Position numbers and translations under genes: made by a program
Origin: Nanobdellota archaeon
Lineage (GTDB): Archaea > Nanobdellota > Nanobdellia > Woesearchaeales > GCA-2686295
Length of the DNA: 58,030 nt
Reading direction: 5' to 3'
Assembly (NCBI GenBank): GCA_018817005.1
Contig: JAHIUF010000017.1
Span: 1 to 58,030, forward strand
Shown: piece after piece, positions 8,747 to 49,078 of the stretch
Layout: the number at the start of each line of letters is the position of its first letter
How positions within the stretch are numbered: position 1 is the stretch's first letter
The notes under the pieces: model-generated
Seen by the model: the letters and a program-made list of their open reading frames with translations, nothing else
Database searches by the model: none
What the model was told of the DNA's origin: nothing

Positions 8747-9473
8747 AATCTGGAGTATAAATTTTGACTTGATAAAAGAAGCTAAAAAGATAGAAGATAG
8801 AATTGATTTTCTTGAAGTTTATTTTGTGCCAAAAACTCCTAAAAAAAATATTAGTGAATTAAAAAAAATAAACATTCCAATAATAGTTCATGCGCCAATA
8901 GAACTGCATGGATTTAATCTTGCTGATAAAAACAACAACACACAGAATAATTTAATATTAAAAAAAGTAATTAACTTTTCCAACCAATTAAAATCAAAAA
9001 AAATCATCTTTCATCCGGGTTCCGGTGGAGATATAGAAAATGTTATTTCAATGCTGAAAAACATCAAAAACAAAGAGATATTTATTGAAAACTTAACAAA
9101 AGAAGGAATCAACGGAGAGAAAATGATTGGATTTTTACCAGAAAACATTGCTCGAATAAAAAAAGAGTTAAATTGTGAGCTTTGTCTTGATTTAAGTCAT
9201 GCAATAAAAGCAGCTTTCAGTCTGAAAAAAGATTATAAAAAATTTATAAAAGAACTCTTAAAGCTAAAACCAATTCTTTTTCATTTAACTGGTGGAAATT
9301 CAAATGTCGAAATTGATGAACATCTTAATCTGTGGGATGGAGATTTTGACTTAAATTTTTTAAAAAAGACAATTAAAGAAAATAATGCTCAAGTTACTTT
9401 TGAAACTCCTAAAAAAAATCTTAAAACACTAAGTCAAGATTTAAAAAACATTGATTTCTTCAGAAAAATTTAG
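8730..9473 (+). CDS. Xylose isomerase-like/endonuclease IV-like TIM barrel protein
   Basis: A 247-residue AP-endonuclease-2-superfamily barrel. Candidate metal ligands follow the endonuclease IV order: FHPGSGG, ENLTKEG (Glu), LDLSHA (Asp, His), FHLTGG, DEHLNLWDGD (Asp-x-His) and a terminal TFETPK (Glu). Such barrels act as sugar isomerases/epimerases as well as nucleases; inside a nonulosonate operon a sugar-directed role is more likely. It occupies the place where a PseG UDP-sugar hydrolase might be expected, though the fold is unrelated. Last gene of the coupled operon. Confidence 0.65.
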   Translation: MQLGIKIWSINFDLIKEAKKIEDRIDFLEVYFVPKTPKKNISELKKINIPIIVHAPIELHGFNLADKNNNTQNNLILKKVINFSNQLKSKKIIFHPGSGGDIENVISMLKNIKNKEIFIENLTKEGINGEKMIGFLPENIARIKKELNCELCLDLSHAIKAAFSLKKDYKKFIKELLKLKPILFHLTGGNSNVEIDEHLNLWDGDFDLNFLKKTIKENNAQVTFETPKKNLKTLSQDLKNIDFFRKI

Positions 9474-43749: not shown

Positions 43750-43826
43750 GCCCTTTAAGAAAGAATAATAGTTTATAAGGGTTTGCATGAGAAAAGTATA
43801 TAAATAAACCCTTGTTTAGGAAGTAC

Positions 43827-44477
43827 ATGCCTAAAAAGACATCAACAAAAACAATAATAAATAAGAAAACAAAAACCGCTGTTAAGATTGTTGCAGATAA
43901 AAAAAAAGAGAAAAAAGCACCTAACATAATTAAAAAGGAAGAGTCAAAAAAAGAAAAACCAAAGGCTTTTTTTGCCCGAGAAAGAGTTATTACAGAAGAT
44001 AATGATTCTGCAAGAGAACTTTTTAACCAAAGTTGTTACGGAAAAATTCTTGACGATGGAAAAGTCCAATTATCACTTCAAGAAGCACTCTACCTGATGG
44101 ACAAAGGAAAAATGCTAATTTTAGACGGCAGAAACAAAGAAATGAATTTTCAAGGTTTCTTAAAAAGAGCAAATAAAATCGAACCTAACTTTTGGATAAG
44201 ATATTGTGTTTTTAAAGATATGAGAACAAGAGGATACGTTGTAAAAACAGCTCTTAAGTTTGGAGCTGATTTCAGAGTTTATGATAGAGGTATAAAACCT
44301 GGTGAAGATCATGCACGGTGGATTATTTATCCTGTTCATGAAGGATCAACTTTGACTTGGTATGAATTTGCTGCAAAAAACAGGGTTGCACATTCAACAA
44401 AAAAAAGATTGATGATGGGTGTTGTTGATGATGAGGGTGATGTTACTTACTGGGAAATCAAGTGGCTTAGACCTTAA
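43827..44477 (+). CDS. endA: tRNA-splicing endonuclease EndA with basic N-terminal extension
   Basis: Cuts introns from pre-tRNA at the bulge-helix-bulge motif. Catalytic Tyr in RVYDRGIKPG, His in EDHARWIIYPV and Lys in AHSTKKRLMMG are all in order in the last 80 residues. A lysine-rich extension of about 45 residues precedes the N-terminal domain (REL FNQSCYGKIL). I chose ATG 43827 (MPKKTSTK) over the TTG at 43812. About 216 residues with one catalytic unit, suggesting a homotetramer or a dimer with a partner. A TATA box lies near 43800. Confidence 0.88.
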   Translation: MPKKTSTKTIINKKTKTAVKIVADKKKEKKAPNIIKKEESKKEKPKAFFARERVITEDNDSARELFNQSCYGKILDDGKVQLSLQEALYLMDKGKMLILDGRNKEMNFQGFLKRANKIEPNFWIRYCVFKDMRTRGYVVKTALKFGADFRVYDRGIKPGEDHARWIIYPVHEGSTLTWYEFAAKNRVAHSTKKRLMMGVVDDEGDVTYWEIKWLRP

Positions 44478-46434: not shown

Positions 46435-47307
46435 GTGGAGTGGTTCATATATGTTTTAGTTTCAGCGGTGTTCACAGCAGTACTATCAATATTTAATAAA
46501 AAAATATTAACGCACGAACACGCATTAGAATTTTCTGCAAGTAGAGGAGTTATAATGTTTTTTCTCTGTCTTTTTCTAATTCCATTTATTAATTTAAAGC
46601 TTCATTGGAGTGTTTTTATTTTGGTGTATTTCACATCACTTATAACTACAGCAGGGGTTTTATTTTATCTTAAAAGCTTACGACATGGAGAGGTTTCAAC
46701 AATAGCACCACTTATGAATATGAGCCCATTATTTCTTTTAATAATAGCATTTTTTATTCTAGGAGAGGTTCCAAGTCCCCGACAATATTTTGGTGTGTTT
46801 CTCTTAGTATTGGGAACATATTCTTTAGAAGTGGGTGTTAATAATAAAGGCTTTTTTGAACCAATAAGAATTTTTTTAAAATCAAAAATAATACATTTTT
46901 TGTTTTTTGCAATGATTATTTTTAGTATTACGGCAACCCTCGATAAATTCATAGTTTCAAATTACACCAATTTTTTAAGTTACTTTTTCTTATTAACAAT
47001 ATTTAAGATGATAAATTTTGTTGCACTCGAAACCTATCAACATGGATTTGGAGAAATCATAGGTGATTTAAAAAAAGATTTTCGACTCTTGACAATAACT
47101 GCTGTTTTCGCATTTTTCGGACATATATTTTACTTGCTGGCAGTATCTATTCCCGGAGCTGCAATTTCATTAATTATTCCAATTAAAAGAACATCTAATT
47201 TATTTACAACTATCATCGGTGGAAAACTTTTTCATGAAAAAAATCTTTTAATAAAAGTTCTTTCCTGTATTATAATGCTTTGGGGGGCAGTTTTTATACT
47301 AATATAA
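46435..47307 (+). CDS. EamA/DMT-superfamily transporter
   Basis: A 290-residue protein with ten likely membrane segments in two repeats. The first repeat ends with TIAPLMNMSPLFLLIIAFFILGE, the second with AAISLIIPIKRTSNLFTTIIGG, both characteristic of EamA domains. It starts at GTG 46435 with AGAGGT about 8 nt upstream. Substrate unknown; it lies between fen and the Trm5-like gene with short gaps. Confidence 0.78.
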   Translation: MEWFIYVLVSAVFTAVLSIFNKKILTHEHALEFSASRGVIMFFLCLFLIPFINLKLHWSVFILVYFTSLITTAGVLFYLKSLRHGEVSTIAPLMNMSPLFLLIIAFFILGEVPSPRQYFGVFLLVLGTYSLEVGVNNKGFFEPIRIFLKSKIIHFLFFAMIIFSITATLDKFIVSNYTNFLSYFFLLTIFKMINFVALETYQHGFGEIIGDLKKDFRLLTITAVFAFFGHIFYLLAVSIPGAAISLIIPIKRTSNLFTTIIGGKLFHEKNLLIKVLSCIIMLWGAVFILI

Positions 47308-47314
47308 CACTAAA

Positions 47315-49078
47315 ATGATTGGAGCAAAAATATCATTAAAAAAAGCCGAGAAATTAAAAAGATTCATTTTAAAAAAAAATCTTTTAGATTTTGATTATAA
47401 ACCTATAAACAATGAAACGCACATTATTTTTCCTGTTAAAAAAAAGTTTGAATTTGAAGAAGTTGAATTTGTAAAAAAAAACTTCATAAAAAAAGACAAA
47501 AACTCATGGATTGATTTGTTAAAAAAATCTTTAACAAAAAATGAGTTTTCAAAACTAATAACTGCTCATGATGTGGTTGGAACTATTGCTATTTTAGAGA
47601 TTCCAGAAATCCTTGAAAAAAAAGAAGAATTAATTACGAAAACACTTCTAAAATCCAATAAGAATTTAAAAACTATTTTAAAAAAAGTTGGACAACATAA
47701 AGGGATTTTTAGAACTCAAAAACTGAAATTTCTTGCAGGAGAAAACACTAAAGAAACAATTCATAAAGAAAATGGTGTTAAAATAAAAGTTGATGTTGAA
47801 AAGGTTTATTTTAGTGCTAGACTTTCAAGTGAGAGAAAAAGAATTGCAAAACAAGTAAAAGAAGGTGAAGATATTCTTGTTATGTTTTCCGGATGTGGAC
47901 CTTACACTTGTGTTTTATCAAAAAACACTCTTGCAAGAAACGTATTTGGAATTGAAATAAATCCTCTTGGACATAAATACGCAGATGAAAACGTGAAACT
48001 CAATAAACTTCATAATGTTATAAATGTTAATGGTGACGTAAAAAAGGTTGTTCCAAAAATATTTCATTATCTTGTGGGTTTGAAGTCTGCAGATAAAGAT
48101 GATGAAATGCAAAAAAGGCTTGTACATCATCCTGTTTTAATGGAGTTTCATCTCTTTGATGATGATTTATTTGAAAATAAAAAAAGAGAAAAACTCGAAA
48201 AAACAATTCAGAAATTACAATCAAAAGGAATACAAGTAGTTTTACACATGCTCTTTAAACATAACGGAAAAAATTATTCTTTAGGACAAAAAGATATTAA
48301 AACAGAACTTCAAATGTTTAAAACTCTTGGTGGTCTTTGCAAGAAATATCACCTTAAAGCAATAATTCATCCAACTCAAAACATAGGTGTCGCAGAAGAT
48401 GAAGAAATGCTTGTTGAACACATTAAACTATTAGAACCTTGGTTTGATTATTTCTATTTTGAAAATGTGACTTTTGGGTTATTCACTAAAGCGAACAATA
48501 TTATTCGAATAGGAAAAAAAGCCGGAATAAAAAATATGTGTATTGATACTTGTCATTTATTCATTACTTATCAAGACAATGCAAAAATAGAAAATCATAT
48601 TAAAAAAATAAGAAAACACTTCAACACATATTTTCACTTGAATGATCATGATTACAAAACCCATTCGTGTGAAATTGGAACTGGTTATATTGATTTTTCA
48701 AAAGTGCTTCCTTATGTCAATTTTGGTGTTACAGAAGTTTGTAGCAAAAATGAGAAAAAACCAAAAGAAATGGTACATAGCTATTTAAAAATTGAACATT
48801 CACACAGAAAGTTTGACAGAATTTTAATGCCGCTTCCAAAATCTGCAGAAGATTTTTTACCAACTGCATTAAAGGTTGTAAAGAAAGGCACAATAATTCA
48901 TTTTTATGACTTCTTGCATGAAACAGAATTTGACAAATGCGAAGAAAAAGTGAAAACTGCTTGCGACAAAAACAATGTGAAATACAAAGTGTTAAATTTT
49001 GTAAAATGTGGACAATACAGCCCTGGAAAATATCGGGTCTGTTTGGATTTTAAAATAACTACTCAAAAAAACAAATAA
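47315..49078 (+). CDS. Trm5-type tRNA (guanine37-N1)-methyltransferase interrupted by a TIM-barrel domain
   Basis: A continuous 587-residue frame with three parts. Residues 1-248 are the Trm5 N-terminal domain and first half of its Rossmann fold: DVVGTIAILEIPEIL, VYFSARLSSERKRIA, SGCGPYTCVL (SAM motif I), FGIEINPLGHKYADEN, VNGDVKKVVPKI. Residues about 250-497 are an endonuclease IV/xylose isomerase-like barrel: IIHPTQN, YFENVTFG, CIDTCHLF, YFHLNDHD, EIGTG, VTEV. Residues 498-587 resume Trm5: FDRILMPLPKSAEDFL (motif IV), IIHFYDFLHETEF. In Trm5 proteins the first and third parts are normally contiguous. tRNA m1G37 or wyosine-type function is expected; the barrel's role is unknown. Confidence 0.8.
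   Translation: MIGAKISLKKAEKLKRFILKKNLLDFDYKPINNETHIIFPVKKKFEFEEVEFVKKNFIKKDKNSWIDLLKKSLTKNEFSKLITAHDVVGTIAILEIPEILEKKEELITKTLLKSNKNLKTILKKVGQHKGIFRTQKLKFLAGENTKETIHKENGVKIKVDVEKVYFSARLSSERKRIAKQVKEGEDILVMFSGCGPYTCVLSKNTLARNVFGIEINPLGHKYADENVKLNKLHNVINVNGDVKKVVPKIFHYLVGLKSADKDDEMQKRLVHHPVLMEFHLFDDDLFENKKREKLEKTIQKLQSKGIQVVLHMLFKHNGKNYSLGQKDIKTELQMFKTLGGLCKKYHLKAIIHPTQNIGVAEDEEMLVEHIKLLEPWFDYFYFENVTFGLFTKANNIIRIGKKAGIKNMCIDTCHLFITYQDNAKIENHIKKIRKHFNTYFHLNDHDYKTHSCEIGTGYIDFSKVLPYVNFGVTEVCSKNEKKPKEMVHSYLKIEHSHRKFDRILMPLPKSAEDFLPTALKVVKKGTIIHFYDFLHETEFDKCEEKVKTACDKNNVKYKVLNFVKCGQYSPGKYRVCLDFKITTQKNK

What the first reader, a model, noticed from the sequence alone, without database searches (positions are those of the whole stretch)
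47315..49078. Trm5 tRNA methyltransferase split by a TIM-barrel insertion
Residues ~1-248 and ~498-587 of one continuous frame are the two halves of a Trm5 domain, joined elsewhere at the loop between the GDVKKVVPKI strand and the FDRILMPLP catalytic strand. Here ~248 residues (DNA ~48062-48805) intervene, with the sequence order of an endonuclease IV/xylose isomerase-like barrel (HPTQN, FENVTFG, IDTCH, HLNDHD, EIGTG, VTEV). Insertion of a whole metal-dependent barrel into the catalytic Rossmann domain could link tRNA G37 methylation to a second reaction, such as a further wyosine-type step, sugar chemistry or RNA cleavage. I know of no described Trm5 with this architecture.
Basis: partly seen in the sequence, partly recalled or inferred. 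Interest (0 to 1): 0.85.

Follow-up and report, generated by a model that had tools for sequence, protein, structure and literature searches.

The report
Mobile metal-enzyme barrel inside Trm5
In some Woesearchaeota-like archaea, the enzyme that makes a near-universal tRNA modification (Trm5, m1G37) carries a complete second metal-enzyme domain in one surface loop; this domain has been passed between distantly related species by local gene conversion, and what it catalyses is unknown.

Summary
ORF 47315-49078 (587 aa) is one intact archaeal Trm5. A complete TIM barrel (residues ~250-498, xylose-isomerase/AP-endonuclease-2 superfamily) replaces the two residues that relatives have between helix alpha-C and strand beta-4. 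AlphaFold2 predicts both domains (pLDDT 87). The insertion is not an assembly artefact. It occurs at the same site in 26 of 353 genomes of the order, in one genome of another order and in independent MAGs, including a single-contig genome where it is the only full Trm5. Seven metal-site residues are invariant in the nine aligned intact barrels (27-76% identical to the window's barrel), and dN/dS is low. Two genomes keep decayed barrels, and two carry the barrel as a separate gene. The finding missed that the barrel travels sideways. The window's gene is a mosaic: its outer parts belong to its own family, but the barrel and ~50/~35 flanking codons belong to a lineage of other families. A second genome shows the same signature upstream of the insert. 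A wyosine link is not supported by distribution. The barrel lacks two Endo IV ligands and resembles sugar isomerase/epimerases at least as much as nucleases. Most likely it is an active, substrate-unknown metalloenzyme riding in a permissive Trm5 loop. I found no published description.

The parts
47315..49078 (+). Trm5 (tRNA m1G37 methyltransferase-like) ORF with internal TIM barrel, 587 aa
47315..48061 (+). Trm5 N-terminal part: D1, D2 and first half of the Rossmann methyltransferase domain (residues 1-249)
   Evidence: Pfam and PDB matches
48062..48808 (+). inserted (beta/alpha)8 barrel, residues 250-498, PF01261 superfamily
48809..49075 (+). second half of the Rossmann methyltransferase domain, residues 499-587, beginning with the beta-4 motif FDRILMPLPK
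47915..48061 (+). upstream flank (residues ~201-249) that tracks the barrel's lineage rather than the host family: gene-conversion tract
48809..48916 (+). downstream flank (residues ~499-534) that tracks the barrel's lineage
48245..48247 (+). H311, strand beta-3 metal-site His (Endo IV H69-like)
   Evidence: invariant in A1; 25/29
48368..48370 (+). H352, strand beta-4 metal-site His (Endo IV H109-like)
   Evidence: 28/29
48461..48463 (+). E383, strand beta-5 metal-site Glu (E145-like)
   Evidence: 29/29
48545..48556 (+). D411-x-x-H414, strand beta-6 metal-site motif (D179/H182-like)
   Evidence: 28/29 and 27/29
48635..48637 (+). H441, strand beta-7 metal-site His (H216-like)
   Evidence: 28/29
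48734..48736 (+). E474, strand beta-8 metal-site Glu (E261-like)
   Evidence: 28/29
48083..48085 (+). K257, conserved Lys at strand beta-1, kept even in the decayed barrel of G028
48143..48145 (+). E277, conserved Glu at strand beta-2, typical of sugar isomerase-like barrels and not of Endo IV (from knowledge)
   Evidence: 27/29
48830..48841 (+). PLPK (506-509): NPPY-motif position with Pro where M. jannaschii Trm5b has Asn265
   Evidence: alignment; papers PMC7761594, PMC5372744
45387..46421 (+). upstream FEN1-like flap endonuclease gene, syntenic with fused and unfused relatives
   Evidence: named by eye
46435..47307 (+). upstream EamA-like transporter gene, syntenic with fused and unfused relatives
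   Evidence: named by eye

Best explanation
The gene encodes a working tRNA m1G37 methyltransferase (Trm5) with a second, complete metal-dependent TIM-barrel enzyme in its alpha-C/beta-4 loop. Shown: the architecture, the single shared insertion site, conservation of the barrel's metal-site residues, purifying selection, and horizontal exchange of the barrel between trm5 genes of different families with short flanking co-conversion. Inferred: one ancestral insertion of a free-standing barrel gene into a loop that tolerates inserts, then spread and loss by gene conversion between occupied and empty trm5 alleles. The barrel most likely acts as a tethered but independent metalloenzyme, with isomerase/epimerase-type or phosphoester chemistry on a sugar-phosphate- or nucleotide-like substrate, rather than as a step of G37 modification. 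Its substrate is unknown.
For: Architecture. Recurrence at one site: 26/353 genomes of the order plus one in another order, and eight named independent contigs. Only full Trm5 in a one-contig, 100% complete genome (G017), so the methyltransferase presumably works with the insert. Trm5 residues kept: R133 (= Mj Arg145), E173 (= Mj E185) and SAM motifs. Metal-site residues invariant among nine barrels 27-76% identical to the window's and >=25/29 overall. Barrel dN/dS ~0.04-0.26 in pairs with unsaturated dS. Free-standing barrels in G329 and G087. Mosaic gene: outer parts group with own family at 100/99.9 and reject the donors (p-AU 4e-6); flanks group with the donors at 95/86; barrel groups with the donors at 100/100, and the two fused members of its family are not sisters (p-AU 0.003). 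Window-scan permutation p about 0.0005. Second case: G025 versus same-genus unfused G129, 10 of 10 informative sites at 223-249 follow G109, its barrel's sister. Conserved synteny with unfused same-genus G001.
Against: No activity, metal content or substrate is known. Third codon positions between the window gene and its donors are saturated, so exchange is inferred from amino-acid patterns, and the flank-only data do not by themselves reject the family grouping (p-AU 0.32). Two genomes keep decayed barrels, so activity is not needed for retention. A single origin is parsimony only: the methyltransferase tree needs 13 changes. Only two free-standing barrels anchor the root.
Confidence: 0.62

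Rival explanations
1. The barrel is an RNA-directed second active site: a tRNA-bound Trm5 presents the anticodon arm or damaged tRNA to an Endo IV/UVDE-like metal centre that cleaves, trims or repairs it.
For: Beta-3 and beta-4 histidines plus the E/D-H/H/E set resemble Endo IV and UVDE; UVDE and Endo IV appear among sequence and fold matches; the domain sits on a tRNA-binding enzyme.
Against: Endo IV ligands D229 and H231 are not conserved. The best fold matches are ketose 3-epimerases. The insertion loop lies away from the catalytic face (established topology). Free-standing barrels show no RNA-related neighbours by eye.
Confidence: 0.15
2. The barrel takes part in wyosine-type hypermodification of position 37 after m1G37 formation.
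For: These Trm5s carry PLPK, the proline that in P. abyssi Trm5a (Taw22) accommodates imG-14 (PMC7761594), and Taw1 is present in the window genome.
Against: The proline is general in the order, fused or not. Taw1 presence does not differ: 8/10 fused versus 40/50 unfused; a 93% complete fused genome (G047) lacks Taw1.
Confidence: 0.05
3. The insert is a selfish, homing-like element: a nuclease-fold domain that spreads between trm5 alleles by break-induced gene conversion and is tolerated because the loop is permissive.
For: Patchy presence within genera, one exact site in a conserved gene, short co-converted flanks, decayed copies.
Against: No intein splicing residues at the borders. No family match to homing endonucleases. 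The barrel superfamily is not known for site-specific cutting. Sustained purifying selection. Not found in the virus, phage or plasmid collections.
Confidence: 0.08
4. The barrel is now a structural or regulatory module (stability, partner or ligand binding) and its metal site serves folding rather than catalysis.
For: Two decayed barrels persist (G028, G245), and an unrelated ~100-aa insert occupies the same loop in another family.
Against: Catalytic-face residues are far better kept than the rest in nearly all members.
Confidence: 0.12
5. Assembly or binning artefact joining two genes.
For: The window genome is a 91-contig draft.
Against: Same junctions in many independent assemblies including a single-contig genome.
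Confidence: 0.01

Closest known systems
Archaeal Trm5b / Trm5a (Taw22), COG2520 (PDB 5yac, 5wt1, 2zzm)
   Same: Domain order D1-D2-Rossmann, SAM motifs, Arg145 and Glu185 equivalents, best sequence and fold matches
   Different: ~249-aa barrel between alpha-C and beta-4; Pro instead of Asn at the NPPY position (shared with Taw22 and with unfused relatives)
Xylose isomerase-like / AP endonuclease 2 superfamily (PF01261), e.g. MJ1311 (3wqo), D-tagatose/D-psicose 3-epimerases
   Same: (beta/alpha)8 fold; Glu, Asp, His, Glu metal ligands; MJ1311 is the best PDB profile match (6e-6) and epimerases are the best fold matches
   Different: Nested inside a methyltransferase; extra beta-3 and beta-4 histidines shared with MJ1311 and Endo IV; about 9-16% identity to the solved barrels it matches
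Endonuclease IV (Nfo) / UVDE
   Same: Seven of nine Endo IV zinc ligand positions occupied by the same residues; weak sequence match to M. tuberculosis Endo IV (0.0054)
   Different: D229 and H231 positions not conserved; NCBIfam deoxyribonuclease IV score 14.7 against cut-off 244
Inteins and homing endonucleases
   Same: In-frame insertion at one site of a conserved gene, patchy distribution, horizontal spread with co-converted flanks, decayed copies
   Different: No splicing residues, domain stays in the protein, different fold and no known target cutting

Membership tests
Trm5 (tRNA guanine-37 N1-methyltransferase, COG2520) | TRM5/TYW2 methyltransferase domain with D1 and D2 N-terminal domains | tested here: met
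   PF02475 157.9 bits, PF25133, PF18093 all over cut-off
Trm5 (tRNA guanine-37 N1-methyltransferase, COG2520) | Arg145 and Glu185 (M. jannaschii numbering) present | tested here: met
   R133 and E173 align to them and are invariant in fused members
Trm5 (tRNA guanine-37 N1-methyltransferase, COG2520) | curated NCBIfam Trm5b equivalog score | tested here: not met
   251 bits against 600; uninformative, since 0 of 353 genomes in the order and none of the control genomes reach it
Trm5 (tRNA guanine-37 N1-methyltransferase, COG2520) | m1G37 methylation activity | not testable with these tools
   needs enzyme assay
Taw22 (bifunctional Trm5a) | Pro at the NPPY Asn position (PTPK motif) | tested here: met
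   P506 aligns to Mj N265 (PMC7761594); shared by unfused relatives
Taw22 (bifunctional Trm5a) | NCBIfam Taw22 score cut-off 550 | tested here: not met
   180.3 bits
Taw22 (bifunctional Trm5a) | imG2 formation | not testable with these tools
   needs enzyme assay
Xylose isomerase-like TIM barrel (PF01261) | profile match over cut-off and eight beta/alpha units | tested here: met
   37.4 versus 31.1 bits
Endonuclease IV | Zn1/Zn2 ligands H69, H109, E145, D179, H216, E261 and H182 | tested here: met
   H311, H352, E383, D411, H441, E474, H414; Endo IV numbering from knowledge
Endonuclease IV | Zn3 ligands D229 and H231 | tested here: not met
   positions vary across members
Endonuclease IV | AP-site cleavage | not testable with these tools
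   needs assay
D-tagatose 3-epimerase-like | Glu, Asp, His, Glu metal ligands on beta-5, 6, 7, 8 | tested here: met
   E383, D411, H441, E474
D-tagatose 3-epimerase-like | ketose epimerisation | not testable with these tools
   needs assay
Intein | Cys/Ser at start and His-Asn-(Cys/Ser/Thr) at end of insert | tested here: not met
   borders read ...VPKI|FHYLV and HSHRK|FDRIL

The most novel reading that the evidence does not exclude
A protein-embedded mobile domain: a catalytic TIM barrel that propagates between orthologous trm5 genes of different archaeal families by targeted gene conversion, possibly driving its own spread, and remains in the mature enzyme as a second active site.
Probability: 0.08. 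Interest if true: 0.9.

Novelty: new variant of a known kind. Interest (0 to 1): 0.62.

Why it matters
Trm5 makes a modification found in nearly all archaea, yet here its catalytic domain hosts an entire second enzyme under purifying selection, in a subset of a large archaeal order. The insert moves between species as a domain cassette with short co-converted flanks, so it is a natural example of horizontal domain swapping inside a core translation gene. It gives a direct route to an untested question: what metalloenzyme chemistry, if any, has been tied to tRNA position-37 methylation in these small-genome archaea.

Tried and rejected
Assembly artefact: rejected by recurrence in independent assemblies. 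Wyosine link: no association with Taw1. Replacement of a missing Endo IV: fused genomes also carry free-standing PF01261 barrels, e.g. in the complete genome G017. Mobile-element carriage: nothing in IMG/VR, phages or plasmids. PDB search with the barrel sequence alone gave only a chance match to SusA. Literature searches found no Trm5 with this architecture; the library holds open-licence papers only. Considered and set aside: selection for barrel contacts as the cause of donor-like flanks. Flank residues such as GHKY also occur in unfused genes, the donor-like stretch ends within ~50/35 codons, and two unrelated recipients each match the lineage of their own barrel.

Full report
Observation. 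The frame 47315-49078 is one open reading frame of 587 codons. Pfam assigns Trm5_N, TYW2_N_2 and TRM5-TYW2_MTfase (157.9 bits, in two stretches), with PF01261 (xylose isomerase-like TIM barrel, 37.4 bits, cut-off 31.1) between the methyltransferase pieces. NCBIfam ranks Trm5b first (1.7e-74), aligned in two stretches. P. abyssi Trm5b/Trm5a and M. jannaschii Trm5 align to residues 1-249 and 499-582 with nothing for the middle. In unfused relatives the loop is 1-6 residues, mostly two, typically LK.

Structure. AlphaFold2 with an alignment of nine fused proteins from the window and genome-contig loci gives pLDDT 87.4 and pTM 0.81, with eight beta/alpha units in residues 254-494 between Rossmann helix 242-253 and strand 500-504. 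Foldseek matches the whole model to Trm5b/Trm5a across the gap and, separately, to D-tagatose 3-epimerases and UVDE. The barrel alone (pLDDT 79.4) matches ketose 3-epimerases, UVDE and MJ1311. A barrel profile finds MJ1311 (6e-6), then weakly Endo IV (0.0054), in the PDB.

Metal site. In nine intact barrels, 27-76% identical to the window's, the invariant residues include E277, H311, H352, E383, D411, H414, H441 and E474 (window numbering); in 29 rows, including partial and decayed ones, each is kept in 25-29. By the model they sit at the C-terminal ends of strands beta-2 to beta-8, the active-site side of a TIM barrel. Seven coincide with Endo IV ligands, but the D229/H231 positions are not kept, so I do not file it as Endo IV. 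A conserved Glu on beta-2 and Lys on beta-1 are not Endo IV features (from knowledge).

Not an artefact, and old. 26 of 353 genomes of the order carry the insert (some cut by contig ends), always at this site, plus one genome of another order. Eight named contigs from separate studies, titled Woesearchaeota, Nanoarchaeota, Nanoarchaeia or archaeon, have it. In the single-contig, 100% complete genome G017 it is the only full Trm5, so the protein presumably works as a methyltransferase. R133 and E173, which align to Mj Arg145 and E185, are invariant. The NPPY position is Pro, as in Taw22 (PMC7761594), but this holds for nearly all sampled Trm5s of the order, fused or not.

Decay and ancestry. 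G028 has an insert recognisable only by profile comparison (E 4e-6) with its metal residues gone; G245 is likewise degenerate. G329 and G087 carry the barrel as a separate gene of 259 and 244 aa, each with a Trm5 elsewhere that lacks the barrel. In family f85, G329's family, Trm5 has an unrelated ~100-aa insert in the same loop, absent from one congener, so the loop tolerates inserts.

Horizontal movement. Within genera the insert is present in some species and absent in others (g1, g2, g20; in g166 decayed or absent). The methyltransferase tree needs 13 changes of state. The window's methyltransferase groups with its family f1 (100/99), yet its barrel groups with G047, G243 and G022 of other families (100/100), and grouping it with the barrel of G003, the other fused f1 member, is rejected (p-AU 0.003). 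Residues 1-200 plus 535-583 group with f1 (100/99.9) and reject the donors (p-AU 4e-6). Residues 201-249 plus 499-534 group with the donors (95/86), although this short stretch alone does not reject f1 (p-AU 0.32). A scan over all windows gives permutation p about 0.0005. A second case: G025 is ~80% identical to unfused congener G129 over most of the gene but 46% at residues 226-249, where it is 83% identical to G109, whose barrel is its sister; 10 of 10 informative sites there follow G109 against 9 of 71 elsewhere. FEN1-EamA-trm5 gene order is the same in the window and in unfused same-genus G001 (names by eye), so the locus stayed and the insert arrived. Barrel and short flanks thus moved by gene conversion. 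Third positions are saturated between window and donors, so the events are old.

Selection. In pairs with usable dS the barrel's dN/dS is about 0.04-0.26, in the same range as the methyltransferase part.

Function. Taw1 is present in 8 of 10 fused and 40 of 50 unfused genomes, so a wyosine step is unlikely. Fused genomes also have free-standing PF01261 proteins, so the insert is not a replacement AP endonuclease. I therefore favour an independent, tethered metalloenzyme of unknown substrate, and list RNA-directed, structural and homing-like readings as rivals.

Novelty. No paper in the searched library describes it. It is a new variant of Trm5, not a new kind of system; the unexpected part is the domain's horizontal mobility inside a core gene.

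Noticed in passing
L071 661-2709 (G053:C24); L070 (G000:C61); matches in most genomes of the order: A ~650-750 aa protein in which two PF01261 barrel segments (profile ~1-100 and ~137-230) are separated by roughly 300 aa: a second unusual barrel-with-insert, nearly universal in the order.
   Followed up: no
L126-L131, L123 (family f85 Trm5): Trm5 of family f85 carries a different ~100-aa insert in the same alpha-C/beta-4 loop, absent in one congener (G327), plus ~30 aa after alpha-B.
   Followed up: partly
48830-48841 and orthologues: Trm5 proteins of this order, fused or not, nearly always have MPLPK at the NPPY motif, i.e. the Taw22-like proline, although they score best as Trm5b.
   Followed up: partly
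window 8856-9440: Another, free-standing PF01261 barrel protein (249-aa open frame) lies in the same window.
   Followed up: no
43812-44477: ORF that looks like a tRNA-intron endonuclease, a few genes upstream of FEN1-EamA-trm5 (by eye).
   Followed up: no
L122 8965-9807 (- strand): HerA/VirB4-like ATPase ORF that seems to contain an intein C-terminus (VYDITVEDTHNFIANNIISHN|C) (by eye).
   Followed up: no
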